Assembly (NCBI RefSeq): GCF_003946885.1
Contig: NZ_RWKQ01000010.1
Location: forward strand, 15,835-71,824
DNA: 55,990 nt
Source of the DNA: Specibacter cremeus
Lineage (GTDB): Bacteria; Actinomycetota; Actinomycetes; Actinomycetales; Micrococcaceae
Direction of reading: 5' to 3'
Part shown: piece after piece, positions 4,013 through 55,990 of the stretch
Layout: each line of letters opens with the position of its first letter
How positions within the stretch are numbered: position 1 is the stretch's first letter
The notes under the pieces: model-generated
Told to the model about the DNA's origin: nothing
Database searches by the model: none
Seen by the model: the letters and a program-made list of their open reading frames with translations, nothing else
Translations under genes and position numbers: made by a program

Positions 4013-4031
4013 ACCCCGGCGGGTCCGGGGT
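4013..4031. terminator. hairpin between convergent iclR and cysN
   Basis: ACCCCGG (4013-4019) pairs with CCGGGGT (4025-4031) over a 5-nt loop in the 91-nt gap between two convergent genes. A bidirectional terminator is likely. There is no T-run, and its right arm runs into a repeat unit. Confidence 0.45.
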
Positions 4032-4052
4032 CTCGACGAACTCGACCACCGG
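4029..4052. repeat. VELVET-family repeat, single unit
   Basis: One inverted unit, GGTCTCGACGAACTCGACCACC, with one arm base differing from the consensus. It lies just past the cysN stop codon (4057). Confidence 0.75.
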
Positions 4053-4056
4053 CGCG

Positions 4057-5484
4057 TCAGATGACGTAGCGCTCGTCCTCGTGGTCGCCCGGGTGGTCCT
4101 TGACAAGCCCCGCGGCCAGCGTGTTGCCGTCCTGCGGATCGATCACCAGGAACGCCCCGGTGCGGCGATGCCGCGCATACGTCTCCACGGGCAGCGGGGA
4201 GGCCAGGCGCAGCTGCGCCGAGCCGATGTCGTTCAGGTCCAGCCCGGACGCCGGCGCCTCGGCGAACGTATCCAGGTCCAGCTTGCCGGTGACGGCACGG
4301 ACCAGCGCCTGCACGGTCTTGCTGCCCTGCTTCACCAGTACCTTGGCGCCCTCGCGCAGCGGCTTCGTCGACAGCCAGCACAGCTCGGCGTACACGTCCT
4401 GCGACGGCTCGCCGAACGTGCCGCGGGCCGCGACCAGGTCGCCGCGGGCGATGTCGATCTCGTCGGCCAGGCGCAGCGACACCGACTGCGGCGCCACGGC
4501 CGTCTCCAGCGACCGGCCGGCGAAGTCAATGCCCGTCACAACCGTGGAACGCCCCGACGGCAGCACGGTGACCGCGTCCCCCACGGACACGGACCCCGAC
4601 GCCACCTGCCCCGCATAGGCGCGGTAATCACGGAAGGCGGCACCGCCGTCGTCCGCGGCGAGCTCCGGCGCCAGCGCACCCTGCGGCCGGATCACCAGCT
4701 GCACCGGGAACCGGAACGGCTCCAGCCCGCGCTCCAGCTCGTCCGTGGTGGGCAGCGTCTCCAACAGCGTCAGCAGCGTGGGCCCCGTGTACCAGGGGGT
4801 GTGCGCGGAGCGGTCCACCACGTTGTCGCCCTCCAGCGCGGACACGGGCACGACGGCGACGCCGTCCAGTCCCAGCTCGGTGCCCACCGCCTGCACGTCG
4901 GCCCGGATCGCCGCAAACACGGCCTCGCTGTAGTCGACCAGGTCGATCTTGTTCACGGCCACCACAACGTTGGGCACGCGCAGCAGGCGCAGCACGGACA
5001 GGTGCCGGCGGGTCTGCTCCAGCACGCCCTTGCGGGCGTCGATGAGGACGACGACGGCGTCCGCCGTGGACGCGCCGGTCACCGTGTTCTTGGTGTACTG
5101 CACGTGGCCGGGGCAGTCGGCCAGGATGAACGAGCGCCGGTCCGTGGCGAAGTAGCGGTAGGCCACATCGATCGTGATGCCCTGCTCGCGTTCGGCCCGC
5201 AGGCCGTCGGTCAGCAGCGCCAGGTCGATCTTCTGCCCGCTCGCCGAGTCGCCGCCGAAGCCGCGGTCCGCGGAGGTGCGGGCGACGGCGTCGAGCGTGT
5301 CGGCCAGGATCGCCTTGGAATCGTGCAGCAGCCGGCCCACCAGCGTCGACTTGCCGTCGTCCACGGACCCGGCCGTGGCGAAGCGAAACAGCGTACCGGC
5401 CGTGGTTGAGCCTGTGCCGGTGGTCGAGCTTGTCGAGACCTGGGTCTCGACAAGCTCGACCGCCGGTGCATTGGGAGTGCTCAT
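4057..5484 (-). CDS. cysN: sulfate adenylyltransferase subunit 1 (GTPase)
   Basis: A 475-residue EF-Tu-like GTPase that drives sulfate activation to adenosine 5'-phosphosulfate (APS) by the catalytic partner CysD. The G1 loop GSVDDGKST lies near residues 38-46, G3 is DCPGHVQY and G4 is NKIDLV. Domains 2 and 3 follow the GTPase domain. No CysC (APS kinase) domain is fused at the C-terminus, which agrees with the APS reductase encoded next door. The ATG overlaps the cysD stop (ATGA). Residues 7-28 (VELVET, VSTSSTT) are encoded by a genomic repeat; no alternative start lies between it and G1, so the repeat must be translated. Confidence 0.95.
   Translation of the reverse strand: MSTPNAPAVELVETQVSTSSTTGTGSTTAGTLFRFATAGSVDDGKSTLVGRLLHDSKAILADTLDAVARTSADRGFGGDSASGQKIDLALLTDGLRAEREQGITIDVAYRYFATDRRSFILADCPGHVQYTKNTVTGASTADAVVVLIDARKGVLEQTRRHLSVLRLLRVPNVVVAVNKIDLVDYSEAVFAAIRADVQAVGTELGLDGVAVVPVSALEGDNVVDRSAHTPWYTGPTLLTLLETLPTTDELERGLEPFRFPVQLVIRPQGALAPELAADDGGAAFRDYRAYAGQVASGSVSVGDAVTVLPSGRSTVVTGIDFAGRSLETAVAPQSVSLRLADEIDIARGDLVAARGTFGEPSQDVYAELCWLSTKPLREGAKVLVKQGSKTVQALVRAVTGKLDLDTFAEAPASGLDLNDIGSAQLRLASPLPVETYARHRRTGAFLVIDPQDGNTLAAGLVKDHPGDHEDERYVI
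5402..5466. repeat. VELVET-family repeat inside cysN N-terminus
   Basis: It contains a perfect 19-bp inverted pair: 5422-5440 (GGTCGAGCTTGTCGAGACC) and 5443-5461, separated by TG, plus a diverged half unit at 5402-5419. It is read in frame as cysN codons 7-28. In the mRNA the pair could form a very stable hairpin close to the start codon. Confidence 0.9.
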
Positions 5485-6461
5485 CAGAAGTACCCGTCCT
5501 TCTTGCGGTCTTCCATGGCCGCCTCGGAAATCCTGTCGTCGGCGCGCGTGGCGCCGCGTTCGGTCAGCGTGGACGCGGCCACTTCGCGGACCACGTCATG
5601 GACGGTCGCCGCGTCGGAGGCGACGGCCCCGGTGCAGGACATGTCCCCCACCGTGCGGTAGCGGACCTGCTTGACGATCACTTCCTCCTCGGGGCGTGGC
5701 TGCGAGACCTCGCCCACTGCGCGCCACATGCCGTCGCGGGCGAACACCTCGCGGTCGTGGGCGTAGTACAGCGGCGGCAGCTCGATGTTTTCGCGGGCGA
5801 TGTACCGCCACACGTCCAGCTCGGTCCAGTTGCTGATCGGGAAGGCCCGCACATGCTGGCCCACGGTGTGCCGGCCGTTGTACAGGTTCCACAGCTCGGG
5901 GCGCTGGTTGCGGGGGTCCCACTGGCCGAACTCGTCGCGCAGCGAGAGGATGCGCTCCTTCGCCCGGGCCTTGTCCTCGTCCCGGCGGCCGCCGCCGAAC
6001 ACGGCGTCGAACCGGTTCCGGGCGATCGCGTCCAGCAGCGGCACGGTCTGCAACGGGTTGCGGGTGCCGTCGGCGCGCTCGGCCAGCTCGCCGCGGTCGA
6101 TGAACTCCTGCACGGAGCCCACCTCCAGCCGCAGCCCCAGACGTGCCACCGTGCGGTCGCGGAACTCGATGACCTCCGGGAAGTTATGGCCGGTGTCCAC
6201 GTGCAGCACCGGGAACGGCACCTTGCCCGGCCAGAACGCCTTCGTGGCCAGGTGCAGCATCAGCACGGAGTCCTTGCCGCCGGAGAACAGCAGCGCCGGG
6301 CGCTCGAACTCGGCCACCACCTCGCGGATGATGTGGATGGCCTCGGCCTCGAGCAGGTCCAGGCTGGTCAGGCCGTGGGTCTGGGTCTCGACAAGGTCAG
6401 GGGTCTCGACAAGCTCGACCACCGACTCAACCACCGATTCGTCAATTGTCTGGGTGCTCAT
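5484..6461 (-). CDS. cysD: sulfate adenylyltransferase subunit 2
   Basis: A 325-residue catalytic subunit of ATP sulfurylase, an ATP pyrophosphatase-fold enzyme making APS from ATP and sulfate with CysN. The PP-loop is SGGKDSVLML (about residues 54-63). HVDTGHNFPEVIEFRD and GGGRRDEDKARAKER are further signatures, and the C-terminus ends RKKDGYF as usual. The start is ATG 6461, which overlaps the cysH stop as ATGA; a longer reading frame exists upstream but is overlapped by cysH. Residues ~10-27 are repeat-derived (VVELVETPDLVET) and replace the normal short N-terminus before LLEAEAIHIIREV. Confidence 0.95.
   Translation of the reverse strand: MSTQTIDESVVESVVELVETPDLVETQTHGLTSLDLLEAEAIHIIREVVAEFERPALLFSGGKDSVLMLHLATKAFWPGKVPFPVLHVDTGHNFPEVIEFRDRTVARLGLRLEVGSVQEFIDRGELAERADGTRNPLQTVPLLDAIARNRFDAVFGGGRRDEDKARAKERILSLRDEFGQWDPRNQRPELWNLYNGRHTVGQHVRAFPISNWTELDVWRYIARENIELPPLYYAHDREVFARDGMWRAVGEVSQPRPEEEVIVKQVRYRTVGDMSCTGAVASDAATVHDVVREVAASTLTERGATRADDRISEAAMEDRKKDGYF
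6381..6432. repeat. VELVET-family repeat inside cysD N-terminus
   Basis: Two inverted-orientation units, one degenerate (GTCTCGACAAGGTCAGG) and one intact (GGTCTCGACAAGCTCGACCACC), are read in frame as about codons 10-27 of cysD. Confidence 0.85.
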
Positions 6462-7240
6462 ACGTGTAGTCCGCATTCTGTCTTGGAGGTTCCGGCCCAA
6501 CGACCGGAGCGGGGGTCCGCGCCGGGGGCCACTTTCTGCGTGCAGGGGGCGCAGCCGATGGACGGGTAGCCCTGGCCCAGTAGGGGGTTGACGGGCAGCA
6601 GGTTGTCCTCGGCGTAGGCCATCAACTCGTCGTACGTCCACGCCGCCACCGGGTTGACCTTGACCAGCCCGTTCTTCGCGTCCCACGTGACCAGCGGCGT
6701 GTTGGTCCGGGTGGGGGCCTCGTCCCGGCGCACGCCGGTGAACCACAGCTCGTACCCGGCCAGCGCATTGCTGAGCGGCGCCACCTTGCGCAGTGCGCAG
6801 CACTGGGCGGGGTCGCGGGCGAACAAATCTTTGCCGAGCAGCGAATCCTGCTGCGCGACGGTGTGTTCGGGCAGCACGTCGACGATGGTAACGCGCAGGT
6901 TCGCCGCCACCTCGTCACGTGTGGCATAGGTTTCGTCGAAGTGGTAGCCGGTGTCCAGGAACAGCACGTCCACGCCGGGCAGCTGGTCGGCGACGAGCGC
7001 CGGCAGGACGGAATCGGCCATGGAACAGGCGACGGCGGTGGCTTGCGTTTCGAAGTTGCGCGCCACCCAGCCGATGACGTCGGCGGCGGGCGCGTCCCAG
7101 CCGAGTTCCGCCGCACCGGCCGCCGCCAGGACGCGCAGCTCGTCGCGGGTGCGAACGGTGGTTGAGCCCGTCGAAACCTGGGTCTCGACGTGCTCGACCA
7201 CCGGGGTCTCGACAGGCTCGACCACCGGGGTCTCGCTCAT
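6458..7240 (-). CDS. cysH: APS (adenylyl-sulfate) reductase
   Basis: A 260-residue assimilatory reductase that converts APS to sulfite with thioredoxin as electron donor. Cys147-Cys148 and Cys230/Cys233 (CxxC) give the [4Fe-4S] ligand pattern of APS reductases rather than cluster-free PAPS reductases. The catalytic Cys256 lies in the ECGLH tail. FLDTGYHFDETY and GVRRDEAPTR are substrate-binding motifs. The ATG at 7240 overlaps the cysI stop (ATGA). Residues 3-28 derive from a repeat array (VEPVET, VEHVET, VSTGSTT); no start codon follows it before conserved sequence, so the repeats are part of the protein. Confidence 0.95.
   Translation of the reverse strand: MSETPVVEPVETPVVEHVETQVSTGSTTVRTRDELRVLAAAGAAELGWDAPAADVIGWVARNFETQATAVACSMADSVLPALVADQLPGVDVLFLDTGYHFDETYATRDEVAANLRVTIVDVLPEHTVAQQDSLLGKDLFARDPAQCCALRKVAPLSNALAGYELWFTGVRRDEAPTRTNTPLVTWDAKNGLVKVNPVAAWTYDELMAYAEDNLLPVNPLLGQGYPSIGCAPCTQKVAPGADPRSGRWAGTSKTECGLHV
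7157..7232. repeat. VELVET-family repeat inside cysH N-terminus
   Basis: Three units (GGTTGAGCCCGTCGAAACC, then inverted GGTCTCGACGTGCTCGACC and GGTCTCGACAGGCTCGACC) are translated as codons 3-28 of cysH. Confidence 0.9.
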
Positions 7241-21640: not shown

Positions 21641-22297
21641 GTGAACCTTGACCTTGCCGTGCTGCTCGACCTTGTCGGCGTGTTCTTCTTTGCCGTGTCC
21701 GGCTCGCTGCTGGCCGCCCGTAAGGGCTTCGACATGATCGGGTCGCTGCTGCTCGGTTCCATGGTGGGGCTGGGCGGCGGGGTGGTCCGCGATGTGATCC
21801 TCGCGGCCGGGCCACCCGCCGCGTTCTCCAACCCGTTGTACCTGCTGCCGCCGCTGCTGGCTGCGGCGCTGGTGTATTTCCTGCCGCGCAGCGTGGAGCG
21901 CGGCAGCCGGCTGCTGTTGACGTTCGACGCCAGCGGGCTGGCCTTGTTCTGCCTCACCGGCACGCGCAAGGCGCTCGAAGCCGGCATGAACCCGGTGGCG
22001 GCCGTGCTGCTGGGCGTCACCACGGCGGTGGGCGGCGGCGTCCTGCGCGACATCACCGCCAACGAGGTGCCCCGCCTGTTCGACCCGCACGATCTGTACG
22101 CGATCCCGGCCATGGTGGGTGCCGTGCTGACGGCCGGGTTGTGGTCGCTGGGCTGGCTGAACCTGGTGACGGGGCCGGTGGTGGTGGTCGCCGTGTTCAT
22201 GTTGCGGATGCTGGCCCTGCGCTTCGGCTGGCATTCGCCGCTGGCCGCCCGGTCCTGGATCTTGTCCCGGCGCCGCCGGGCCTTCCGCCGCGACTAG
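21641..22297 (+). CDS. UPF0126/TRIC-family membrane protein
   Basis: A 218-residue protein with about seven spans and two repeated halves. Each half carries a GGGVVRD or GGGVLRD motif (MVGLGGGVVRDV and AVGGGVLRDI), as in bacterial relatives of trimeric intracellular cation channels (YicG/UPF0126). The start is GTG 21641 with AGGGGA upstream. A much longer open frame exists upstream but covers the opposite-strand ABC gene and is not real. Ion selectivity cannot be judged. Confidence 0.88.
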   Translation: MNLDLAVLLDLVGVFFFAVSGSLLAARKGFDMIGSLLLGSMVGLGGGVVRDVILAAGPPAAFSNPLYLLPPLLAAALVYFLPRSVERGSRLLLTFDASGLALFCLTGTRKALEAGMNPVAAVLLGVTTAVGGGVLRDITANEVPRLFDPHDLYAIPAMVGAVLTAGLWSLGWLNLVTGPVVVVAVFMLRMLALRFGWHSPLAARSWILSRRRRAFRRD

Positions 22298-22334
22298 GAT
22301 TGAAGGCGAGCCGCAACCTACCGGGGAGAGTCAG

Positions 22335-22766
22335 ATGAGCGACGTGTTCGTGGACAAGTTCAAGGCCCTGGTACAGCTGTACCTGGATGAGCCGTGGCAG
22401 GAGGCGGACGGCATCGCCGCCGACGAACTGGACGCGATCCTCGTCGAGCAGCAGGTCAGCATCCCGCTGGCCATGCGCGATTTCTTCCTGGCCCTCGCCA
22501 ACTGCGAGGAGCTCATGGAAGCCTACTACTACTTCTGGGATCCGGAGGAGCTGGAGATCGAGGACGGCTACCTGCTGTTCCTCGAGGACGCGGACGAGGC
22601 CTACACGTGGGGCCTGCGCGCCGACCAGCTGGACGTCCCGGATCCGATCGTGTGGCGGCGCAACAACGCCAAGGGCAACTGGATCTGCGAGGAGGGCACG
22701 TTCAGCGAGTTCGTGCTGGACATGCTCGACTGGGTGTTCACGGAGGAAGACGAAGACAAGGACTAG
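22335..22766 (+). CDS. SUKH (SMI1/KNR4)-like protein, possible immunity protein
   Basis: A 143-residue acidic protein with GGGGAGAG before its ATG. The pattern VSIPLAMRDFFLALANCE, followed by YLLFLEDADEAYTWGL and a late W plus SEFVLDMLDWVF, matches the SMI1/KNR4 fold used by many immunity proteins against polymorphic toxins. No toxin gene adjoins it, so it could be an orphan immunity gene or a housekeeping SUKH protein. A tandem repeat array begins 5 nt after the stop. The family assignment is by visible pattern. Confidence 0.7.
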   Translation: MSDVFVDKFKALVQLYLDEPWQEADGIAADELDAILVEQQVSIPLAMRDFFLALANCEELMEAYYYFWDPEELEIEDGYLLFLEDADEAYTWGLRADQLDVPDPIVWRRNNAKGNWICEEGTFSEFVLDMLDWVFTEEDEDKD

Positions 22767-22771
22767 CCGGG

Positions 22772-22891
22772 GGTCGAGCCTGCCGAGACCCCGGTGGTCG
22801 AGCCTGTCGAGACCCCGGTGGTCGAGCCTGTCGAGACCCCGGGGGTCGAGCCTGTCGAGACCCCGGGGGTCGAGCCTGTCGAGACCCCGGG
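22772..22891. repeat. VELVET-family tandem array, five 24-bp units
   Basis: Five head-to-tail copies of GGTCGAGCCTGTCGAGACCCCGGK run without spacers (22772, 22796, 22820, 22844, 22868); unit 1 has one change. The 24-bp period equals 8 codons, and all six frames stay open through the array. It separates two small genes. Confidence 0.95.
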
Positions 22892-22925
22892 GGTCCCGTG
22901 CGGCCTGAGACGATAGCGTAGCCCC

Positions 22926-23459
22926 ATGTCCACCGAGAACCCCCGGGCCGATCTGCTGCCAGACCCCGCAGCGGTCGTGGTACTGGTGAAGAACCTGGTC
23001 GAGGGGCCGTGGCCCCGGACGGAAGCCGACCGCGTCGAGTTGTTCCAGCGCCTCAAACTTGTGTCCAAGGGCGCGGTCGAGCAGCCGGCTGGCGGCCCGA
23101 CGACGCTCTTCCGGATGGAGACGGCCCTGCACGGCGGCGTCTTCGGCTCGTGGGACAGCTACCGCGAGCGGTTCATGGGCGTTTGCGTGCACGTATACAA
23201 CGCGCCGACACCGCGCAATCCGGACACTCGCCGCGGCTATGACGAGGTCAGATTTCTCCTGACGACGCTGTACGGCGAGCCCACCGAGCCGTGGCACGGC
23301 GAAAAGACCCCGCCGTGTATCTGGACCGTGAACGGCCGGCGGGTCACCATCCACTTTTTCGACGCTCGCGACAGCAGCGTCATGGTCAGCATTGAGGACG
23401 GCATCCTGGCGGACTTGGCGGAAGCGGAGAGCGGCGACCATGTTCGACCTGATGACTGA
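22926..23459 (+). CDS. hypothetical protein
   Basis: A 177-residue protein I do not recognise. It has no signal peptide or membrane span. The central part (ALHGGVFGSWDSYRERFMGVCVHVY, residues ~64-88, then DEVRFLLTTLYGEPTEPWHG) looks like an alpha/beta domain with many aromatic residues, and the C-terminus is acidic. Small size and position beside the SUKH-like gene, between two repeat arrays, resemble immunity-gene clusters, but there is no direct evidence. The ATG at 22926 has no strong ribosome site. Confidence 0.65.
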   Translation: MSTENPRADLLPDPAAVVVLVKNLVEGPWPRTEADRVELFQRLKLVSKGAVEQPAGGPTTLFRMETALHGGVFGSWDSYRERFMGVCVHVYNAPTPRNPDTRRGYDEVRFLLTTLYGEPTEPWHGEKTPPCIWTVNGRRVTIHFFDARDSSVMVSIEDGILADLAEAESGDHVRPDD

Positions 23460-23518
23460 CTCGGCGAGGTCCGGGATTCGCCGGGACAGACTCCCCGGCT
23501 GAACCACATGGGACACCA

Positions 23519-23646
23519 GCCGAAACCCCGGGATCTCAACAAGCTCGATCACCGGACCAGCCGCTGGTTGAGCCTGCCGAAACCCCGGGATCTCGACAAG
23601 CTCGATCACCGACAAGCTCGATCACCGACAAGCTCGATCACCGGGG
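23519..23646. repeat. diverged VELVET-family repeat cluster
   Basis: Mixed units with A/T substitutions (GGGATCTCAACAAGCTCGATCACC, TGGTTGAGCCTGCCGAAACC, GGGATCTCGACAAGCTCGATCACC), followed by two more short GACAAGCTCGATCACC copies. It lies just beyond the stop of the polyprenyl synthase gene and is more worn than the 22772 array. Confidence 0.85.
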
Positions 23647-23649
23647 CCG

Positions 23650-24753: not shown

Positions 24754-24756
24754 GAA

Positions 24757-26067: not shown

Positions 26068-26072
26068 GTCAG

Positions 26073-31162: not shown

Positions 31163-31293
31163 CCCGGTGGTCGAGCTTGTCCCCCGGTGGTCGAGCCTGT
31201 CGAGACTCCGGTTGATTACTGACAGGCTCAATCACCGAACCGGTGGTCGAGCTTGTCGAGACCGATGATTTCGACAAGCTCGACCACCGGTTC
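31163..31293. repeat. VELVET-family repeat cluster between ABC ATPase and menD
   Basis: It contains a truncated unit (GGTCGAGCTTGTC), a full unit, an inverted TTGATTACTGACAGGCTCAATCACC variant, and an inverted pair GGTCGAGCTTGTCGAGACC...TTTCGACAAGCTCGACCACC. The pair can form a long hairpin and may serve as terminator for two convergent genes. Confidence 0.9.
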
Positions 31294-31296: not shown

Positions 31297-33018
31297 TTAC
31301 GGGGCCAACGCCTCCGCGAGGCGGGCGTGGAGGGCACGCAGGTCGGTGCGTTTCGCACGCACCTCGACGATGCTGCGGCCCGTGACGGGTGCGTCAAGGA
31401 TGGCACTGAGCTCCGCCCCCGGCGTGACGGCCCGGTGCGCCCAACCGTACGCGACCGCCAGTGCGGACAGGTTGACCTGGTGGGGCGTGCCGAAGAAGCG
31501 TTCGACGGCGGCCCGGTACACGGGTGTCTCGCCGAGCCGCCCGTGCTCAAGGGTCGTGAAGATGCCGCCGCCGTCGTCGTTGAGCACGACGACCTGCAGA
31601 TCCGCGGCGCGTTCCCCGGGCCCGGTGAGCAGCGCACCGGCGTCGTGGAGCAGGGTCAGGTCGCCGAGCAGCACGCGCGTCGGGCGGCCCGTGGCCAGCG
31701 CTATGCCCGTGGCCGTGGCCACGGTTCCGTCGATCCCGGCCAGACCGCGGTTGGCGAACACCCGGGCGTAGTGGTGGCCCGCGCCGGGCCGGCCGGCCAA
31801 GTCGACGTCGCGGACCGGATTCGACGAACCGAGTACCAGATTGGTGCCCGGATGGTTCCTGCCGGCGAGCCACAGGTCGCGCGCCAGCGCCACACCGGTG
31901 GCGTCCGTGCCATCCGCGAGCACCGCCTCCAGTTCTCGCTCGGCGATCGCCGCCCGCTCCTGCCACGCGGCCAGCCAGCCGTCCGGACCGCGACCGGCAA
32001 AGCCGACGAGCTGCTCCCACTGGGTCAGCACCAGCTCGGGGCGCCGGCCCGGCTCGAACCAGGCGACGGGACGCGGCACGTACAGGGCCCGTTCCAGCTC
32101 GGGGCAGGCCAGTAGTCGGGCGACCGGCCGGGACAGCGTGGGCCGGCCAAACACGACCACCCGCTCGATGGGCCGTGCCGTGACGGGGCCGAAGTGGTCC
32201 AGCAGCAGCCGGTACGGGCCGATTGCGTTGGGCCCGAAGCGGGCGTTCGACGACGGCTCGGCCAGCAGCGGCAGGCCCAGCAGACGGGCAAAGTACTCCG
32301 CCGCGGGACCGGCGTCGTGCCCGGCCACGACCACGGTCCGGTGCTCGTTGGACGGCAGGTGATCGGTGGTCGAGCTTGTCGAGGCCTGGGTCTCGACAGG
32401 CTCGACAAGCTCGACCACCGGCCTAGGCTCGGCCACCGCCTCGGTTCCCGGGCGGGTGAGCCACCCGCTCCCGTCCAGCTCCGGGGTGAGCGGCTCGCGA
32501 AACGCCAGGTTCAACTGCACGGGTCCGGCCGGGATCCCCGGCAGCCGGCCCTGCGCGGCACTCAACGCCGTGGCGACGGCGCCGGACGGGTCCGTGCCGG
32601 CCGCGATGTCGGTGGCGAAACGGACGTGCTCGCCGAAGAGATCCAACTGGCTGGTGGTCTGGTTGGCGCCCGTTCCGCGCAGCTCCTCCGGCCGGTCCGC
32701 GGATAGCACGATCAGCGGCTTGCCCGCATGGTTGGCCTCCATGACGGCCGGCAGCAGGTTCCCCACTGCCGTGCCCGAGGTGGTCAGCACGGCCGCCGGG
32801 GCTCCCGCGCCAAGCGCCATGCCGAGGGCCGTGAACCCGGCCACGCGCTCGTCGACGCGAACATCGACGTCCAGCCGGCCGTCCCCCTGCGCCTCGGCCA
32901 GGGCGTAGACCATGGGGGCGCTGCGCGAACCGGGGGCGACGACGACGTTGCGGACGCCGGCCGATTCCAGCGCGTCAACCACGCGTCGGGCGGCGTCCAT
33001 GGAGCTCAGAAAAGTCAC
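31297..33018 (-). CDS. menD: SEPHCHC synthase MenD with repeat insertion
   Basis: A 573-residue thiamine-diphosphate enzyme that joins isochorismate and 2-oxoglutarate in menaquinone synthesis. The N-terminal domain has VVAPGSRSAPM and LTTSGTAVGNLLPAVMEA; the C-terminal cofactor region has GLAGIDGTVATATGIALA and LGDLTLLHDAGALL. Residues ~199-219 (VVELVEPVETQASTSSTT) are a repeat insertion at the boundary between the first and middle domains, a place likely to tolerate extra loop. The start is GTG 33018; ATG 33000 is an alternative. Confidence 0.94.
   Translation of the reverse strand: MTFLSSMDAARRVVDALESAGVRNVVVAPGSRSAPMVYALAEAQGDGRLDVDVRVDERVAGFTALGMALGAGAPAAVLTTSGTAVGNLLPAVMEANHAGKPLIVLSADRPEELRGTGANQTTSQLDLFGEHVRFATDIAAGTDPSGAVATALSAAQGRLPGIPAGPVQLNLAFREPLTPELDGSGWLTRPGTEAVAEPRPVVELVEPVETQASTSSTTDHLPSNEHRTVVVAGHDAGPAAEYFARLLGLPLLAEPSSNARFGPNAIGPYRLLLDHFGPVTARPIERVVVFGRPTLSRPVARLLACPELERALYVPRPVAWFEPGRRPELVLTQWEQLVGFAGRGPDGWLAAWQERAAIAERELEAVLADGTDATGVALARDLWLAGRNHPGTNLVLGSSNPVRDVDLAGRPGAGHHYARVFANRGLAGIDGTVATATGIALATGRPTRVLLGDLTLLHDAGALLTGPGERAADLQVVVLNDDGGGIFTTLEHGRLGETPVYRAAVERFFGTPHQVNLSALAVAYGWAHRAVTPGAELSAILDAPVTGRSIVEVRAKRTDLRALHARLAEALAP
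32364..32422. repeat. VELVET-family repeat inside menD
   Basis: GGTCGAGCTTGTCGAG (32368-32383) and CTCGACAAGCTCGACC (32401-32416) are perfect 16-bp inverted arms around a second partial unit. It is read in frame through the middle of menD. Confidence 0.93.
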
Positions 33019-33093: not shown

Positions 33094-33110
33094 GTAGAAT
33101 TGAGGAAGCG

Positions 33111-34280: not shown

Positions 34281-34291
34281 TCTGGGCACCC

Positions 34292-35413: not shown

Positions 35414-35523
35414 GGATCGCGCCCTCCCTCACGGTTCCCTGCCGCCCGGCAGGTGCGCCGCCACGAGACAGTGAGGCGGCTTAGTCCCGACATTACACGG
35501 ACCGCCAGCCCAGAAACAGGGAC

Positions 35524-36528: not shown

Positions 36529-36577
36529 GCGCCCCACTCTAGGGTTCTTCCCAAGTTTGTGTGGCAACCTAGACGGG

Positions 36578-37471
36578 ATGACTACGTACGGGAGCCGATC
36601 CGGGCATGCACGCCGCCGGGCCGCCGCCCCCCACGCGTTGCCGTTCATCCTTGCCGCGCTGATCGCCCTGGCCGGGGTCGTGGCCACGTACCAGCTGTTC
36701 GTGAACCGCACCGAGGGCCAGTTCATCGACGAGTCCGCGCTGACCGAGGCCGCCGTGGCACGCCACTATCTCGGCGTCCAGGCGTCTCAATGGCTGGATG
36801 CCCTACCGCTCACGAGCGTGGTGATCGCCGCCTTCGTCGTGCTGTTCGTCACGCTGGCGCGCCGCCGCTGGAAGGCGGCCGGCATCGCCCTGCTTGCCAT
36901 GGGCGCGGCGAACCTGAGCACCCAGTTGATCAAGGCCGCGCTGCCCAACCGGCCGGACCTGGGTGTGGACACCCTGTCGCTGAACTCGCTGCCGTCCGGG
37001 CACAGCACGCTGGCCGCCTCGGCCGCCGTCGCCGTGTTCCTGGTGGTGTCGCCGCGATGGCGGCCGGCCGCCGGATTCCTGGGCGGCACGTACGCGGTCG
37101 TGTCGGGCGTCTCGACGCTGGTCAACCAGTGGCACCGGCCCGCCGACGTGTTGGCGGCGTTCTTTGTCGTCGCGTTCTGGGGCGCGCTGGCCGCGCTGGC
37201 CGTGATGCGCACCGGCAACGCCTGGAACGTGTGGGCTGGCCCGCGCGAACACTGGGCGTCTTCCGCGTGGTGGACCATCGGGGCCGCCGGCTTGGCCGTG
37301 CTGACCATCGTCGGCGCATACACGGCGGTGGCGTCCGTGGCCGCCCACCCGCAGACGAGCCGGATCACCTATTTCCTGGCCGGCGCCGCGCTGATCGCCG
37401 CGTGCGGCTACGCGCTGACCATGTTCGGCGCGCTGCTGCTCGGTTCGCAGGCACGACGCCGGGCCCGCTAG
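36578..37471 (+). CDS. PAP2-family membrane phosphatase
   Basis: A 297-residue membrane phosphatase with about six spans. The three phosphatase motifs are KAALPNRP, SLPSGHS and the late STLVNQWHRPADVLA, spaced as in PAP2 enzymes with the active site outside the membrane. Likely substrates are lipid phosphates such as undecaprenyl diphosphate or phosphatidic acid. The start is ATG 36578, facing menC across 49 nt. It is followed by a VIT transporter gene 32 nt away. Confidence 0.9.
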   Translation: MTTYGSRSGHARRRAAAPHALPFILAALIALAGVVATYQLFVNRTEGQFIDESALTEAAVARHYLGVQASQWLDALPLTSVVIAAFVVLFVTLARRRWKAAGIALLAMGAANLSTQLIKAALPNRPDLGVDTLSLNSLPSGHSTLAASAAVAVFLVVSPRWRPAAGFLGGTYAVVSGVSTLVNQWHRPADVLAAFFVVAFWGALAALAVMRTGNAWNVWAGPREHWASSAWWTIGAAGLAVLTIVGAYTAVASVAAHPQTSRITYFLAGAALIAACGYALTMFGALLLGSQARRRAR

Positions 37472-37503
37472 CCGAGGGCCCGCAACTGTGGTTCGCTGGT
37501 CCC

Positions 37504-38238
37504 ATGGACGCTGACGGGCCCGCCGAGTCCCCGTTCCACGACGACGAGCCGCACAACGGAGGATTGGCAGTGCGGCTGAACTGGCTGCGCGCCGGGGTGC
37601 TGGGCGCCAACGACGGGATCGTCTCCGTGGCCGCCGTCGTTGTCGGCGTGGCCGGCGCCACCGGCCACCTCCCGACCATCCTGACCGCGGGCCTGGCCGC
37701 CCTTGTCGGCGGCGCCGTGTCCATGGCCCTGGGGGAATACGTCTCGGTCAGCAGCCAGAGCGACAGCCAGAGGTCGCTGATCGAGAAGGAGCGCTGGGAG
37801 CTGGCGCACATGCCCGAGGAGGAGTTGGCGGAACTCACCGCCCTGTATGAGGCGAAGGGACTCTCCACCGAGACGGCCGCCCTGGTCGCCGCGGAGCTCA
37901 CCGCCCACGACGACCTGGCCGCGCACCTGTCGGCCGAGCTGAACATCGACCCGGACGACATCGTGAGCCCGTGGCACGCGGCCCTGGCCTCCGCCGTCAG
38001 CTTCGTCATCGGGGCGATCCTGCCCATGCTGGCCATCCTGCTGCCGCCCCCGCAGTGGCGTGTTCCCGTGACGTTCCTCGTGGTGCTGGTCGCGCTGGCG
38101 CTGACCGGGGCGACGGGCGCGCGGATCGGCGGGGCGCCGGTTCCGCGAGCCACGGTCCGGGTGGTCGTCGGCGGCGCCGTGGCCCTGCTCGCCACGTTCC
38201 TGGTCGGATCGTGGCTGGGTGCCAGCGGCGTCGTCTAG
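37504..38238 (+). CDS. VIT1/CCC1-family metal transporter
   Basis: A 244-residue protein. Membrane segment 1 contains LRAGVLGANDGIVSVAAVVVGV and segment 2 SMALGEYVSVSSQSDSQ, the hallmark sequences of the vacuolar iron transporter family. A ~75-residue cytoplasmic metal-binding loop rich in Glu follows, then three C-terminal spans. It probably exports Fe(II) or Mn(II) from the cytoplasm. The start is ATG 37504. Its stop overlaps the convergent MFS stop at CTAG. Confidence 0.93.
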   Translation: MDADGPAESPFHDDEPHNGGLAVRLNWLRAGVLGANDGIVSVAAVVVGVAGATGHLPTILTAGLAALVGGAVSMALGEYVSVSSQSDSQRSLIEKERWELAHMPEEELAELTALYEAKGLSTETAALVAAELTAHDDLAAHLSAELNIDPDDIVSPWHAALASAVSFVIGAILPMLAILLPPPQWRVPVTFLVVLVALALTGATGARIGGAPVPRATVRVVVGGAVALLATFLVGSWLGASGVV

Positions 38239-39440
38239 GTGCGCGCCGCCGGCGCGCTGCGCGGGATCCAGTACCAGAGCACGGCGGCCGCGACGAGGCC
38301 GAGCGCCCCGGTGGCCCCGATCCCCACCGACAGCGTCGCCACGGCCGTGATGGCGGACAACAGGGCCGGCCCGCCGGAGTTGCCGACGTCGGACAGGAAC
38401 CGCCAGATACCCAGGAACTGGGGCCGCCCCAGCGCGGGTGAATGGTCCGCGCCGAGCGTCATGATGAGCCCCGAACCGATCCCGTTGCCGAGGCCCACCA
38501 GCAGCGCGACGAGCAACAACGAACCCGCCCCGTGCGTGAACGGCATGGCCAGCAGGCCGAGCCCCATCAACGCCATGGATGGCACGGCCACGGCACTGCG
38601 GCCCTTCTGGTCCATGACCTTCCCGGCCGGGTAGAACACGAGCATGTCGACGGCGCCGGAGAGCCCGTAGATCAGTGATGTGGTTGTGGCGTCCAGGCCC
38701 AGGTTGTCGGCCCACAGGGGAATCACCACTTGCCGGGCGGACCTGACGGCACTGACCAGGACCACACCCACGCCCAGGGTCGCGAACAGCCGGCCGTAGC
38801 TGCCCAGCAGGTGCCGTACCGTGGGAGCCGGCCCCGCCGCCGCCCCCGCGCGGCCCGGTCGGGACTCCAGGTCGGGCAGCGTCCACACCACCACGCCGGC
38901 CGCGGCCACGGCGACGGCGGCCACCCAGTACGCGCCGGCCAGCCCGGCCAGGTGGATGGCCAGGGCGCCCACGAACGGTCCGGCGAAGATGCCGATCCGG
39001 CCCACCCCGCCCAGCGTCGACATGGCCCGGGCGCGCAGCGTGGGCGGGACGGCGGCCGTCAGGTAGCTCTGCCGGGCCAGGTTGAACTCGGCGCTGGCCG
39101 CACCGATCAGCAGCACGCCAAGCGCGAAGAGCCACAGGTCGTGGGCAAGGATGCACAACAGCAACGCCACGAGTGTCAGCACCGAGGCGCCCACGAGCCC
39201 CATGCGCTCGCCGAACCGGGCCGTCAGCAGCGAGGCGGGGATGTTGCTGACCAGCGAGCCGAGCCCCATGAGCGTCACGACCAGGGCGGCCGCGGCCAGG
39301 GACGCACCCATGTCCCGGGCCGTTAGGGGAATCACCGGCAGGATGGCGCCCTGCGCGACCCCGAACAGCAGTGTCGGCCCGAAGACCGGGACGGCGATGG
39401 CTCGCATCGTGGGAGGGGCGGGATTGCTCACTCGCACCAC
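38235..39440 (-). CDS. MFS transporter (12 spans)
   Basis: A 401-residue major facilitator protein with 12 hydrophobic segments. ASLLTARFGERMGLVGAS is the loop after span 2, and AGKVMDQKGRSAVAVPS is its counterpart in the second half. Start choice is uncertain: GTG at 39440, 39437 or 39431, or the ATG of MRAIAVPVFG about 11 codons in. Substrate unknown; it looks like a proton-coupled exporter. A VELVET repeat cluster lies directly before it, where its promoter should be. Confidence 0.85.
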   Translation of the reverse strand: MVRVSNPAPPTMRAIAVPVFGPTLLFGVAQGAILPVIPLTARDMGASLAAAALVVTLMGLGSLVSNIPASLLTARFGERMGLVGASVLTLVALLLCILAHDLWLFALGVLLIGAASAEFNLARQSYLTAAVPPTLRARAMSTLGGVGRIGIFAGPFVGALAIHLAGLAGAYWVAAVAVAAAGVVVWTLPDLESRPGRAGAAAGPAPTVRHLLGSYGRLFATLGVGVVLVSAVRSARQVVIPLWADNLGLDATTTSLIYGLSGAVDMLVFYPAGKVMDQKGRSAVAVPSMALMGLGLLAMPFTHGAGSLLLVALLVGLGNGIGSGLIMTLGADHSPALGRPQFLGIWRFLSDVGNSGGPALLSAITAVATLSVGIGATGALGLVAAAVLWYWIPRSAPAART

Positions 39441-39447
39441 TGTAGCG

Positions 39448-39566
39448 CCCGGGTCTCGACAAGCTCGACCACCGGTGGTTGAGCCTGTCGAAACCCCGGT
39501 CTGTCAAGCTCGACCATCGGTGGTTGAGCCTGTCGAAACCCCGGGTCTGACAAGCTCGACCACCGG
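39448..39566. repeat. VELVET-family repeat cluster between MFS and MBL genes
   Basis: Alternating orientation: inverted GGTCTCGACAAGCTCGACCACC, then TGGTTGAGCCTGTCGAAACCCC twice with worn inverted copies (CTGTCAAGCTCGACCATC, CTGACAAGCTCGACCACC). It fills nearly the whole 129-nt gap. Confidence 0.92.
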
Positions 39567-39569
39567 GGG

Positions 39570-40385
39570 TCAGTGCTGTGTCGCCCGCAATCGGGACAGG
39601 AACAGCCGCGCCTCGTCCGGCCCGTAGGGCAGCATCGGGATGGCCTTCGTGGCCAGGTCCGGCATGTCGGCCAGCGCGTCGGACGCCTGCCGGACGGCAT
39701 GGGTCATGGTGTCGGCCATGCCGGCCACGAACCCGCTCGAGGCCGGCTTCCCGTGGCCCGGGACCAGGAAGTCGTAGCGGTCGCGCAACCCCACCAGCTG
39801 GCGCAGCACATCCGCCCAGTCGGCGGGGAACGAATCCTCGAACGACGGGTCGGCGCCCTCCTCGACGATGTCACCGGCGAACAGCGTGGAGGGCGTGCCG
39901 ACGAGCAGGTCGCCGTCGGTGTGCGCCCGGCCCAGCCAGAACAGCGTCACGCTCACCCCGCCCAGGTCCACGAGCACCGGCCGGTCCTCGACGAGCGCCG
40001 TCGGCGGCACGATCTCCGTGAGCGCCCCGGTGCCGGCAGCCATCTCCGGTTCGGTGCCGCCAACGAAGGCACGCTGCGACTCACCCGTGGCGGCCATCGC
40101 CCGCGCGGCGGCGGCGTGCGCCCAGAACTCGGTGGCGCCGTCGTGCCTGAACACGGCATTGCCGAAGAAGTGGTCCCAGTGCGCGTGCGTGGTGGCAACC
40201 ACCAGCGGCAGCTCCGTCAGCTCGCGCACGGCGGTCAGGATCTGCGCCCCGTGCCGCGGCCCGCACCCGGTGTCGACGACCATGGCCCGCTCGGCGCCGA
40301 CGACCAGCCCGGTGTTCAGCCGGACGCCGGGCACGCCCTGGCTGCCGAGCACATACGTGTTGCCACCCAGATCACGCCATTCCAT
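39570..40385 (-). CDS. metallo-beta-lactamase-fold hydrolase
   Basis: A 271-residue MBL-fold enzyme. The zinc motif is THAHWDH (about residues 65-71), with further metal ligands in LGRAHTDGDLLV, FAGDIVEEG and VPGHGKP. This arrangement fits glyoxalase II-like or quinoprotein-relay (SoxH-type) hydrolases. No signal peptide. It starts 26 nt after the bkdC stop and could be co-transcribed with the bkd genes, though its function need not be related. Confidence 0.9.
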   Translation of the reverse strand: MEWRDLGGNTYVLGSQGVPGVRLNTGLVVGAERAMVVDTGCGPRHGAQILTAVRELTELPLVVATTHAHWDHFFGNAVFRHDGATEFWAHAAAARAMAATGESQRAFVGGTEPEMAAGTGALTEIVPPTALVEDRPVLVDLGGVSVTLFWLGRAHTDGDLLVGTPSTLFAGDIVEEGADPSFEDSFPADWADVLRQLVGLRDRYDFLVPGHGKPASSGFVAGMADTMTHAVRQASDALADMPDLATKAIPMLPYGPDEARLFLSRLRATQH

Positions 40386-40410
40386 GCCAGAACCCTACCG
40401 CCCGGCGGCA

Positions 40411-41796
40411 CTACAATTCTGCCAGCATCGCCGTGGGGTTCTCCATCGCGTCGGCGACGAAGCGCAGGAACCCGGCCGCCACCTCACCGTCGCAGACCCG
40501 GTGGTCGAACGCGAGCGTCAACTCGGCCACCTGGCGCACGCGCAGCCGGCCGCCGACCACCCACGGCCGGGGCATGATGCGGCCCAGGCCGAGCATGGCG
40601 GCCTCGGGGTGGTTGATGATGGCGGCCGACCCGTCGACGCCGAACACGCCGTAGTTGTTGATGGTAAACGTGCCGCCGGACAGCAGCGCCGGGCCGGCCT
40701 TGCCCGCACGCGCCGTCCCGGCCAGCTCGCGGATCCGCGCGTCCAGTTCCCGGGCACCCAACCCCTGCACGCCGCGCAGCACGGGCACCACCAGGCCCCG
40801 ATCGGTCTGGGCGGCGAAGCCGAGATTCACGCCGTCGAACTCGGTGAGCTCGCCGCCGTCGGCGGTGTCCGTGAACTGCCGGTTGAGCTGCGGGTACCGG
40901 GCCAGTCCGGCCGTCGCGAAGCGCGCCACGAACGCCAGCAGACCGGGTGCGGTGCCGTCGCGCTCCTTGAGCTTGCGGCGCAGGTTGAGCAGTTTCGTGG
41001 CATCCACGTCGACCCAGACGGTGGCCTCCGGGATCTCCCGCCGGCTGCGCGAGAACGCGGCGACCGCTGCCCGTTGCATGCCGGTCAACGGGGTGCGGGC
41101 GCGCACGCCCAGCCCGGTGCGTTGGTCGATTCCCGTGGGTGGATGGACGACGACGACGTCCCCGCCCCGGGTGCCCGGCTCGCGTTCGGTTGCGCGGATG
41201 GCGGCGTCGACGTCGCTGCGCAGGATCAGTCCGTCGGGCCCCGTGCCGCGGATGGCCGCCAGGGCCAGGCCGTGATCGTGGGCGAGCTTGCGCACGATCG
41301 GCGAGACCACCAGGGGCGCGGCGGGTTCCGGCGCATGGTTGGCCGGTGCCGCCGGGACGGGCTTCCGCGGCGCCCGCGTGCGGCCGGGCCCCGCCTCGCC
41401 CGAGGTGCCGTAGCCGATCAGCACGTGACCGGACTCGCGGTGATTGAGCTTGTCGAAATCGGTCTCGACGGGCTCGCGGTGATTGAGCTTGTCGAAATCG
41501 GTCTCGACGGGCTCGACCACCGGGGTCTGGGTCTCGACGGGCTCGACCACCGGGGTCTCGGCCCGGATGGAGATCAGCGGCTTCCCGACGGCCAGGGTCT
41601 CCCCCTCGGCCCCGTGCAACGTGGCCACGACGCCCTCGAACGGGGACGGCACTTCGACCACGGACTTTGCGGTCTCCAGCTCGGCAACGGGCTGGTCCAC
41701 GTGGACGGCGTCGCCGACCCCGACCAGCCACGTGACGAGCTCGGCCTCGGTGAGTCCCTCGCCCAGGTCCGGCAACATGAAGACTTGCAGGCTCAT
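40411..41796 (-). CDS. bkdC: branched-chain 2-oxoacid dehydrogenase E2 with repeat-built linker
   Basis: A 461-residue dihydrolipoyl acyltransferase. The N-terminal lipoyl domain (1-80) carries lipoyl Lys44 in ELETAKSVVEV. The subunit-binding domain (about 160-195, VSPIVRKLAHDHGLALAAIRG) and the catalytic domain (about 230-461, active site AFDHRVCDGE) follow. Residues 81-121 of the first linker are pure genomic repeat: VEPVET twice, then PVETDFDKLNHRE twice. Its ATG overlaps the E1-beta stop (ATGA). E3 is not encoded here. Confidence 0.94.
   Translation of the reverse strand: MSLQVFMLPDLGEGLTEAELVTWLVGVGDAVHVDQPVAELETAKSVVEVPSPFEGVVATLHGAEGETLAVGKPLISIRAETPVVEPVETQTPVVEPVETDFDKLNHREPVETDFDKLNHRESGHVLIGYGTSGEAGPGRTRAPRKPVPAAPANHAPEPAAPLVVSPIVRKLAHDHGLALAAIRGTGPDGLILRSDVDAAIRATEREPGTRGGDVVVVHPPTGIDQRTGLGVRARTPLTGMQRAAVAAFSRSRREIPEATVWVDVDATKLLNLRRKLKERDGTAPGLLAFVARFATAGLARYPQLNRQFTDTADGGELTEFDGVNLGFAAQTDRGLVVPVLRGVQGLGARELDARIRELAGTARAGKAGPALLSGGTFTINNYGVFGVDGSAAIINHPEAAMLGLGRIMPRPWVVGGRLRVRQVAELTLAFDHRVCDGEVAAGFLRFVADAMENPTAMLAEL
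41434..41556. repeat. VELVET-family repeat array inside bkdC
   Basis: A 39-bp segment (GGTGATTGAGCTTGTCGAAATCGGTCTCGACGGGCTCGC in part) occurs twice in tandem, followed by two GGTCTCGACGGGCTCGACCACCGG units. All is translated as residues 81-121 of the E2 linker. Confidence 0.95.
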
Positions 41797-42863
41797 GCGT
41801 CCTCCCACTGCAGCTCGTCCACGGCGTCGAGGATGCGGTCCACGCCCGGCAGGTGGTACTTCTCCAGGTTCGGCGCCGGGTAGGGGATGTCGAAGCCGGT
41901 CACGCGCAGCACGGGCGCGGCGAGCGAATGGAAGCAGCGTTCCTGGATTCGAGCGGCGATCTCGGACGCCATGGACGCGAAACCGGGCGCCTCGGCGACG
42001 ACCACGGCCCGCCCGGTGCGGCGCACGGCCGCGCACACGGTCGTATCGTCGAACGGCACCAGCGAGCGCACGTCGATGACCTGCAGCGACCGGCCCTCCG
42101 CCTCGGCCGTCGCGGCGGCCGCGAGCGCGGGGGCGACGGACGGGCCGTAGGCGATCAGGGTCGCGTCGGTGCCGTCCCGGGCGATGACGGCCCGGCCGAT
42201 CGTCGACGGCGCCGCGGCCGTGTGCCGGGCGCGCAGGGCGTCCAGGTCCACCGTGTCCTTGGCGAAGTACAGCTTCTTCGGTTCCAGGAACACGACGGGG
42301 TCCGGTGACGCGATGGCGTCGCGCAGCATGGTGTACGCGTCGGCCACGGTCGACGGCGTGAGGACGGTCAGCCCGGGCGTGTGCACGTAGTAGGCCTCGG
42401 AGGAGTCGCAGTGGTGCTCGACGCCGCCGATCCCGCCCGCGTAGGGGACCCGGATCACCAGTGGCAGCCGGACCCGGCCGCGGGTGCGATTGCCCATCTT
42501 GGCCACGTGGCTGGTGATCTGCTCGAACGCCGGGTACGCGAACGAGTCGAACTGCATTTCGACGACCGGGCGCATGCCGTTCATGGCCATGCCGGTCGCC
42601 ATGCCGACGATGCCGGATTCGGCCAGCGGCGTGTCGAAGCAGCGGTCCTCGCCGAACGTGCGGGTCAGCCCGTCGGTGACGCGGAAGACGCCGCCGAGCG
42701 TGCCGACGTCCTCCCCGAACACGACGACGGACGGGTCGGCGGCCATGGCATCCGCCATGGCCAGCGTCAGCGCCTTCGCGAACGTGAGCGTCTGGACGCC
42801 GTGCAGCTCGGCGAACTCGTTGCGGGATGTCACGCCGTGCGGCGTCTGGGACACGGTGGTCAT
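41793..42863 (-). CDS. bkdB: branched-chain 2-oxoacid dehydrogenase E1 beta
   Basis: A 356-residue transketolase-like beta subunit. VVFGEDVGTLGGVFRVTDGL near the start, ESGIVGMATGMAMNG, and the C-terminal VIDVRSLVPFDDTTV are typical. With E1 alpha it decarboxylates branched-chain 2-oxoacids using thiamine diphosphate and passes the acyl group to E2. The start is ATG 42863, overlapping the E1-alpha stop. The 4-nt overlaps at both ends fix the operon order A-B-C. Confidence 0.94.
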   Translation of the reverse strand: MTTVSQTPHGVTSRNEFAELHGVQTLTFAKALTLAMADAMAADPSVVVFGEDVGTLGGVFRVTDGLTRTFGEDRCFDTPLAESGIVGMATGMAMNGMRPVVEMQFDSFAYPAFEQITSHVAKMGNRTRGRVRLPLVIRVPYAGGIGGVEHHCDSSEAYYVHTPGLTVLTPSTVADAYTMLRDAIASPDPVVFLEPKKLYFAKDTVDLDALRARHTAAAPSTIGRAVIARDGTDATLIAYGPSVAPALAAAATAEAEGRSLQVIDVRSLVPFDDTTVCAAVRRTGRAVVVAEAPGFASMASEIAARIQERCFHSLAAPVLRVTGFDIPYPAPNLEKYHLPGVDRILDAVDELQWEDA

Positions 42864-55074: not shown

Positions 55075-55077
55075 TGC

Positions 55078-55872
55078 TCAGCGACCCGTGAAGTCCGGCT
55101 TCCGCTTGGCCTTGAACGCCGCAAATCCCTCGGCATAGTCGGCCGTGCCGGACAGGTCTGCCTGGGCCTGGTTTTCACGGACGACGGCGTCCCACAGTCC
55201 CAGCCGGCGGTCCCGGATCGCCGCGACAAGGCCCTTGCTGGCGTTGAACGCCCGGGTGGGGCCGGTCGCGGCCTTCACGGCCGCCGCCCGGGTGGTCTCG
55301 AGCAGGGTTTCGGCGGGCAGTGCCCGGCTGAACAGGCCGGACCGCACGGCCTCCGCCCCGCTCATCAGCTCGGCCGTGTAGATCAGGTCGAGGGTCCGGT
55401 GCGGGCCCAGCCGTTCGGTGAACAGCCAGTGCCCGCCGGAATCGAGCGTGGCGCCCAGGTTCGCGAACGGGGAGCCGATCTTCGCGTTCTCCGCCACGTA
55501 CACGACGTCCGTGGCGATCAGCAGCCCCAACCCCACGCCGAGGCAGGCACCCTGGGCGGCCGCGAACGTGGGTGCCGGAAACCCGGACATGCTGCGCAGC
55601 AGCGGGGCGAGCAGGTCCTCCAGGTAGGCGCGCGCCCCCGGGTCAGCGGAGCCGTTCGCACCCTCGATCCCGGCGATGTCCCGCCCAGCGCAGAACGCCC
55701 GTCCCGTTCCTCTCAGCAGCAGCGCCCGGACGCTGCCGGCGGCGGCGGCGGCAGCGGCGTCGTCGTACGCGGCCGCCAGCTCGCCCAACGCACGCTCATC
55801 GAGTGCGTTGAGTTTCTGCGGTGCGTCCAGCACCACCTCGGCGACGGAATCGGCGATGGAAAGGTCAATCAT
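55078..55872 (-). CDS. enoyl-CoA hydratase/isomerase family protein
   Basis: A 264-residue crotonase-fold protein. GRAFCAGRDIAGIEG supplies the first oxyanion hole region and AAQGACLGVGLGLLIATDVVYV the second. ALGATLDSGG-like NLGATLDSGGHW occupies the catalytic loop; the second family glutamate appears replaced by Asp/Ser there, so hydratase versus isomerase (PaaG-like) activity is unclear. The start is ATG 55872 with AGGAG upstream. The frame runs further into repeat DNA, which is not part of the gene. It stands alone, bounded by repeats and a tRNA fragment. Confidence 0.85.
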   Translation of the reverse strand: MIDLSIADSVAEVVLDAPQKLNALDERALGELAAAYDDAAAAAAAGSVRALLLRGTGRAFCAGRDIAGIEGANGSADPGARAYLEDLLAPLLRSMSGFPAPTFAAAQGACLGVGLGLLIATDVVYVAENAKIGSPFANLGATLDSGGHWLFTERLGPHRTLDLIYTAELMSGAEAVRSGLFSRALPAETLLETTRAAAVKAATGPTRAFNASKGLVAAIRDRRLGLWDAVVRENQAQADLSGTADYAEGFAAFKAKRKPDFTGR

Positions 55873-55888
55873 GGCTGCTCCTAGAAGA

Positions 55889-55990
55889 GGTCGGTGGTCG
55901 AGCTTGTCGGTGATTGAGCTCGTCGGGTCTCGACAAGCTCGACCACCGTCGGGTCTCGACAAGCTCGACCACCGTCGGGTCTCGACAAGC
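55889..55990. repeat. VELVET-family repeat cluster at window end
   Basis: One forward unit, a diverged TGATTGAGCTCGTCGGGTC copy, then tandem GGTCTCGACAAGCTCGACCACCGTC units that continue past the end of the window. It lies where the enoyl-CoA hydratase promoter would be expected. Confidence 0.9.

What the first reader, a model, noticed from the sequence alone, without database searches (positions are those of the whole stretch)
4029..55990. A palindromic repeat family that lives inside genes as well as between them
Units of GGTCGAGCYTGTCGAGACC, in both orientations, occur at eleven loci: 4029, 5402, 6381, 7157, 22772, 23519, 31163, 32364, 39448, 41434 and 55889. Five are in frame inside proteins (CysN, CysD, CysH, MenD, BkdC), read as VELVET, VSTSSTT or DKLNHR. 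The canonical unit with its spacer is 24 bp (8 codons) and has no stop in any of six frames, so it can enter a gene in either direction without truncating it. In all five proteins it sits at an N-terminus or domain linker. This parallels Rickettsia palindromic elements, but I know of no formal description for this lineage.
Basis: partly seen in the sequence, partly recalled or inferred. Interest (0 to 1): 0.88.

Follow-up and report, generated by a model that had tools for sequence, protein, structure and literature searches.

The report
Hairpin repeats inside and between genes
A very short DNA hairpin has multiplied to hundreds of copies in this bacterium, mostly behind genes but sometimes inside them as apparently tolerated extra protein linker, and the same hairpin occurs in unrelated bacterial groups without the enzyme usually thought to spread such repeats.

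Summary
All eleven loci are real (28 window hits, 0.01 expected), and the genome has 582 copies against 0 for the reversed pattern. The unit is CGGT + GRTY-GAGCYTGTCGA-RAYC. Its core is fixed and its arms co-vary (417 of 452 cells paired, shuffle maximum 358), so it acts as a hairpin. In an 835-kb sample 53 of 206 units lie in 20 predicted genes, 16 convincing and 4 doubtful, mostly at termini or linkers. Orthologs in congeners differ there.

The RPE/REP parallel is a fair analogy, but RAYT is not the driver: no Y1_Tnp here, 2 of 23 congeners, both low-copy, and 0 of 17 genomes with at least 150 core copies. Freedom from stops in six frames is ordinary (53% of random window 24-mers).

New: matching 23-mers occur in Nocardioides, Cryobacterium, Arthrobacter, Treponema and Bacteroidales, and truncated copies keep the tag but lose the 3' arm (60 against 18). 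I read it as a REP-like, RAYT-independent hairpin element with an unknown mobiliser.

The parts
4029..4051 (-). single unit between the 3' ends of two converging genes (3126-3965 + and cysN)
   Evidence: matrix score 23.7; genes
4057..5484 (-). CysN (475 aa), two units in opposite orientation at residues 6-22, read VELVET and VSTSSTT
   Evidence: congeneric N-termini
5418..5465 (.). inverted pair of units inside cysN (a partial unit precedes at 5402)
5484..6461 (-). CysD (325 aa), one unit near residue 12
   Evidence: congeneric N-termini
6402..6424 (-). unit inside cysD (a partial unit adjoins from 6381)
6458..7240 (-). CysH (260 aa), three units at residues 4-27
7156..7227 (.). three units inside cysH
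22768..22886 (+). tandem array of five units with 24-bp period, just behind the gene ending at 22766
23532..23611 (.). three units with GATC/GGTT arms plus truncated copies, between converging genes
31185..31289 (.). three units plus truncated copies between converging genes
31297..33018 (-). MenD (573 aa), units at residues 199-217 between the N- and C-terminal TPP domain matches
32364..32420 (.). units inside menD (two of the three matrix hits overlap)
39452..39565 (.). four units (one weak, score 17.2) between two co-directional genes
40411..41796 (-). BkdC-type E2 (461 aa), four units at residues 81-119 between the lipoyl and E3-binding domains
41438..41552 (.). four units inside the E2 gene
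55926..55974 (-). two full units plus partial ones from 55889, upstream of the gene at 55078-55872

Best explanation
It is a REP-like, non-autonomous DNA element. The unit is a 5' tag CGGT followed by a hairpin: arm GRTY, core GAG-CYTGT-CGA, arm RAYC. The arms may change as long as they stay paired; the core, which can form two tandem G.A pairs around a five-base loop, does not change. I think it is copied through a single-stranded hairpin on the GAGCYTGTCGA strand, starting at the tag, so that interrupted copies keep the tag and lose the 3' arm. Arrays then grow by local duplication. Y1/RAYT transposase is not the enzyme; the mobiliser is unidentified. Copies in genes survive only where the extra residues are tolerated, at termini, linkers and loops. 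Shown: hairpin covariation, copy number, placement, insertion differences among congeners, polar truncation, absence of Y1_Tnp. Inferred: single-strand intermediate, start of copying at the tag, tolerance as the reason for in-gene placement.
For: 582 copies, reversed control 0. Arms: own 417 of 452 cells paired, shuffle mean 333, maximum 358 in 2000; Treponema plus Bacteroidales 69 of 72, shuffle maximum 61. G.T mismatches 18, A.C mismatches 6, other 12 of 588 pair cells, which points to the GAG strand as the folded one. Truncation: own 60 tag-side halves without a 3' arm against 18 of the other kind (reversed control 7 and 2); Cryobacterium loci 37 and 0; Nocardioides loci 14 and 4. Intergenic clusters: convergent 25, co-directional 23, divergent 2, against 84, 247, 124 gaps (Fisher p 2e-6 and 1e-4). 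53 of 206 units in coding sequence that makes up 88% of the sample. RecG loop with 7 units here, 0-1 in 22 congeners. Copy number 0 to 582 in one genus, the three genomes with at least 165 copies on separate branches. C. fucosi array of 236 bp where a relative has 41 bp.
Against: No mobiliser found. No target-site duplication could be tested. Nearest-neighbour folding gives the actinobacterial unit no better than shuffled energy (DNA z -1.30, RNA z -0.79), and the GATT form no fold as DNA; the tandem G.A reading is my inference. Co-directional intergenic units lean to the transcribed orientation (48 against 28), which a purely DNA-level element need not do. In the Nocardioides loci complete right halves outnumber complete left halves (45 against 29), so the tag is less fixed there. 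The apparent relic CGACCACCG in the relative of C. fucosi means that site is not cleanly empty.
Confidence: 0.55

Rival explanations
1. No dedicated enzyme: the hairpin spreads and multiplies only through replication accidents (template switching, slippage, gene conversion) of the host.
For: No Y1_Tnp; head-to-tail arrays and truncated copies joined to the next tag (35 of 60 own, 31 of 37 Cryobacterium); tags-inside pairs sharing two bases at CACCGGTG (15 of 34).
Against: Does not by itself explain dispersed copies in hundreds, nor the same 23-mer amplified in Spirochaetes, Bacteroidales and Actinobacteria.
Confidence: 0.27
2. A selected functional site at gene ends (mRNA 3' end protection, gyrase or other protein binding), with spread as a by-product.
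For: Enrichment between convergent genes, near absence between divergent ones; 20 of 23 co-directional clusters nearer the upstream gene's 3' end, orientation 48 to 28.
Against: Copy number 0 to 582 within one genus; in-gene copies in both orientations (29 and 24); no excess of terminator-like sites in window 22001-42000 (10 against 7.6 expected); no Rfam match in the window.
Confidence: 0.12
3. Classical RAYT-mobilised REP whose transposase was lost or is too diverged to see.
For: REP-like build; RAYT loss is reported for some E. coli strains (PMC3733652, passage).
Against: 0 of 17 genomes with at least 150 core copies have Y1_Tnp at E 0.001; the 7 of 42 genomes with a hit are Treponema or Bacteroidales with 4 to 141 copies. 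No core unit in the flanks held of 11 Y1_Tnp loci.
Confidence: 0.05
4. Ancient conserved protein sequence that happens to look palindromic.
For: Similar residues recur at the CysD and RecG sites of several congeners.
Against: Orthologs without it in the same genus; the same DNA read in several frames and orientations and outside genes.
Confidence: 0.01

Closest known systems
GTAG-tagged REPs / REPINs with RAYT (Di Nocera 2013 PMC3733652; Bertels and Rainey 2011 PMC3116915, search listing only)
   Same: 20-40 bp imperfect hairpins with a 5' tetranucleotide, hundreds of copies, mostly intergenic and behind genes, pairs in both orientations
   Different: tag CGGT instead of GTAG; no Y1_Tnp in the genome; tandem pairs are common (53 of 133 neighbouring pairs), whereas head-tail dimers are reported absent or rare in most GTAG genomes
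CGTC-tagged REPs (PMC3733652; sections 4 part 1, 5, 6, 15 and 17 part 1 read)
   Same: no dedicated transposase; reported in Bacteroidetes and Spirochaetes among others; intragenic copies, several in repair genes (compare RecG here)
   Different: tag CGTC, loops of 4-5 bp, clusters rare and head-tail dimers negligible, no Actinobacteria mentioned in the text. Figure 2 with the consensus sequences is not held, so overlap with the core could not be checked
Rickettsia palindromic elements (RPE)
   Same: in-frame insertion into functional genes
   Different: part of the RPEs are filed under CGTC-1 and CGTC-4 in PMC3733652; no sequence comparison was made here
Other bacterial MITEs and coding palindromes (PARCEL, PMC2996958; search listing only)
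   Same: short, non-coding or coding palindromic repeats
   Different: not compared in sequence; no terminal inverted repeats with target duplication shown here

Membership tests
REP in the broad sense | short imperfect palindrome, over 100 copies | tested here: met
   582 copies; 23-bp unit with co-varying arms
REP in the broad sense | mainly extragenic, paired in both orientations | tested here: met
   153 of 206 units outside predicted genes; 80 of 133 neighbouring pairs inverted
GTAG REP with RAYT | GTAG tag | tested here: not met
   tag CGGT in 92-98% per position of 145 units
GTAG REP with RAYT | RAYT (Y1_Tnp) in the genome or tracking copy number | tested here: not met
   0 in own genome; 2 of 23 congeners, low-copy; 7 of 42 genomes, none with 150 or more copies
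CGTC REP | CGTC tag | tested here: not met
   tag CGGT
CGTC REP | clusters rare, head-tail dimers negligible | tested here: not met
   53 of 71 clusters hold two or more units; 53 of 133 neighbouring pairs tandem
CGTC REP | family consensus of stem and loop | not testable with these tools
   Figure 2 of PMC3733652 not held
Rickettsia palindromic element | in-frame insertion in functional genes | tested here: met
   16 convincing genes in an 835-kb sample
Rickettsia palindromic element | sequence relation to RPE families | not tested
   no comparison made
MITE | terminal inverted repeats with target-site duplication and a parent transposon | not tested
   no strain pair with clean empty sites was available

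The most novel reading that the evidence does not exclude
GAGCYTGTCGA hairpins form a third large superfamily of bacterial palindromic repeats, beside GTAG and CGTC, defined by an invariant core with tandem G.A pairs and free-running co-varying arms. They cross at least three phyla, burst independently to hundreds of copies, and are copied by an undescribed hairpin-processing activity that is not a Y1 transposase and that starts at the tag, leaving polar truncated copies.
Probability: 0.4. Interest if true: 0.82.

Novelty: new variant of a known kind. Interest (0 to 1): 0.62.

Why it matters
It separates REP-like spread from RAYT in genomes with up to about 600 core copies, and points to an enzyme or host process still to be found. 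The fixed core with free arms, shared by Actinobacteria, Treponema and Bacteroidales, is a direct handle for finding it. The in-gene copies show how a repeat can add linker peptides to enzymes such as RecG, CysN and MenD within one genus.

Tried and rejected
RAYT as driver: rejected by Y1_Tnp searches and by empty flanks of 11 Y1_Tnp loci. Six-frame openness as a special adaptation: rejected, 53% of random window 24-mers share it. Phage or plasmid carriage: the 23-mer is in 3 stretches of viral contigs, and the array matches 1 of 72,556 plasmid records. Terminators: no excess. Rfam: no match. A longer MITE-like element suggested by the many C. fucosi matches to L192 952-1177 turned out to be arrays of full and truncated units. 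RecG model: mean pLDDT 52.9, pTM 0.32; residues 538-603, the repeat loop, are under 50 without secondary structure, but the whole model is too weak to count as more than a hint. A break at one fixed position in truncated units: not seen, breaks are spread. An explanation of the tag through integron attC-like boxes was considered on paper and dropped because the arms vary.

Literature: exact unit strings 0 papers, related strings 0 papers, encoded peptides 0 papers; REP plus RAYT plus Actinobacteria 0 papers; some searches gave listings, with PMC3733652 the only one read at length. PMC2817692 and PMC6006769 were only searched for terms; PMC7381226 only passages, about CRISPR. The library lacks most subscription papers, so absence in print is not shown.
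Full report
Observation. The 19-base unit with up to 3 mismatches occurs 28 times in the window against 0.01 expected. The window lies in a 4.31-Mb, 98-contig genome with 582 copies at up to 2 mismatches and none of the reversed pattern.

Anatomy. I sampled 835,484 bases of the genome, window included. 145 units with the exact core GAGCYTGTCGA and enough flank show conserved bases from seven before to four after the core and nothing beyond: CGGTG-RTY-core-RAY-C. The main arm pairs are GGTC/GACC, GATT/AATC, GATC/GATC, GGTT/AACC and GGTC/GGCC. Of 452 arm cells in 113 distinct units 417 are Watson-Crick; re-dealing the 3' arms gives a mean of 333 and a maximum of 358 in 2000 shuffles, and slid registers give 85-198. 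Shuffles do not remove shared descent, so the strength is not a probability. G.T mismatches (18) outnumber A.C (6), other mismatches are 12, which fits folding of the GAG strand. Between the arms the core can form G.A, A.G and G-C pairs around CYTGT; tandem G.A pairs in pyrimidine-GA-purine context are known to be stable (recalled, no call). Standard folding energies do not support the short form: z -1.30 as DNA, -0.79 as RNA, and no DNA fold for the GATT form; the longer Treponema-type hairpin folds well (z about -3).

Placement. My own gene caller found 740 genes, 88% coding. Of 206 matrix units (reversed control 4) 53 overlap coding sequence, in 20 genes. Intergenic clusters lie between convergent genes 25 times, co-directional 23, divergent 2, against 84, 247 and 124 gaps of 30 bp or more (Fisher p 2e-6 for convergent, 1e-4 for divergent). 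Neighbouring pairs within 100 bp are tandem 53, inverted with tags outside 46, with tags inside 34.

In genes. Of the 20 genes I regard 16 as convincing and 4 as doubtful (an FAD-binding, an M23 and an MFS gene with weak units, and a 163-aa frame with no Pfam match). Of the 16, 15 have a Pfam match over the cut-off and one, AAA_18, is below it. Six are N-terminal (CysN, CysD, CysH, an aminotransferase, the AAA_18 protein, a periplasmic binding protein), four C-terminal (a UDP-sugar dehydrogenase, an aconitase-family protein, a CoA transferase with five units, MazG), six internal (MenD, the BkdC-type E2, another E2, RecG with seven units, a tricorn-type protease, an HrpA-type helicase). In HrpA the units lie inside the DUF3418 match, so not every case is between domains. 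43 of the 53 units read in three frames (VELVET/VEPVET 21, VSTSST 13, LDKLDHR 9); the other three frames hold 10; units in one gene are not independent.

Orthologs. In 23 CysN N-termini of the genus (own included) the core is seen in 5, in different orientations. Start codons between repeat and P-loop are lacking in this CysN, so the repeat is truly coding there. All 23 CysD rows share an MST start; the linker after it carries VEPVET-, VIEPVEI- or no such motif. For MenD my expression read 10 of 23 rows: units in this genome, none in the other 9; 13 rows were not read. In RecG the loop after VCPKIG holds 7 units here; 4 of 22 congeners hold one core, 18 none, though some of those keep unit-like residues such as LVEPIET. 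An alignment of 8 RecGs shows conserved sequence on both sides.

Distribution. Within the genus copies range from 0 to 582 in 23 genomes; a tree of CysN, CysD and RecG pieces puts the three genomes with 165 or more copies on separate branches. In 396 genomes of the order, 55 have any match at up to 1 mismatch; only two exceed 13 copies (418 and 174). In 396 genomes of the phylum only this one is strongly amplified for the core (618 against 26 reversed). In 19 such spirochaete and Bacteroidales loci the core sits between longer, fully paired arms that differ from copy to copy. Core counts in 42 chosen genomes reach 508 in C. fucosi (reversed 28), 450 in N. alcanivorans (24) and 154 in T. bryantii (3). 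Two handles were not held.

Mobiliser. Y1_Tnp, the RAYT domain, is absent from this genome, present in 2 of 23 congeners with 9 and 10 copies, and in 7 of 42 chosen genomes, none of them among the 17 with at least 150 core copies. No core unit lies in the flanks held around 11 Y1_Tnp loci, some of which are short contig ends. Other transposase families were not searched.

Polarity. Truncated units keep the tag side: 60 tag-side halves lack the 3' arm against 18 of the opposite kind in the own sample (reversed control 7 and 2), 37 against 0 in Cryobacterium loci, 14 against 4 in Nocardioides loci; 35, 31 and 10 of these are followed by a fresh GGTG within 14 bases. These named loci were chosen by holding an exact full unit. 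Symmetric deletion between neighbours would give both kinds equally. I infer copying that begins at the tag and often stops in the hairpin. In C. fucosi an array of 236 bp follows a stop codon where a related genome has 41 bp with a CGACCACCG relic, so arrays come and go between species.

Reading. It works like a REP and, inside genes, like a Rickettsia palindromic element, but it fails the GTAG and CGTC tag tests and the RAYT test. I did not find it described; the searches were made, and the figure that could show overlap with CGTC families is not held.

Noticed in passing
window 41520-41617: ARAGORN calls a tRNA-Glu inside the BkdC-type gene; it overlaps the hairpin repeats and is probably false.
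   Followed up: partly
L052:8331-8822: A 163-aa open frame with no Pfam match carries two repeat units; probably not a gene.
   Followed up: partly
NZ_CP012477.1 (Arthrobacter sp. ERGS1:01 plasmid): Six places similar to the window array 22700-22960, the only one of 72,556 plasmid records.
   Followed up: no
L192 946-1181 against L284: Array gained, enlarged or lost between two Cryobacterium genomes behind the same gene.
   Followed up: partly
L131, L132, L133: Three viral contigs each carry one exact 23-mer.
   Followed up: no
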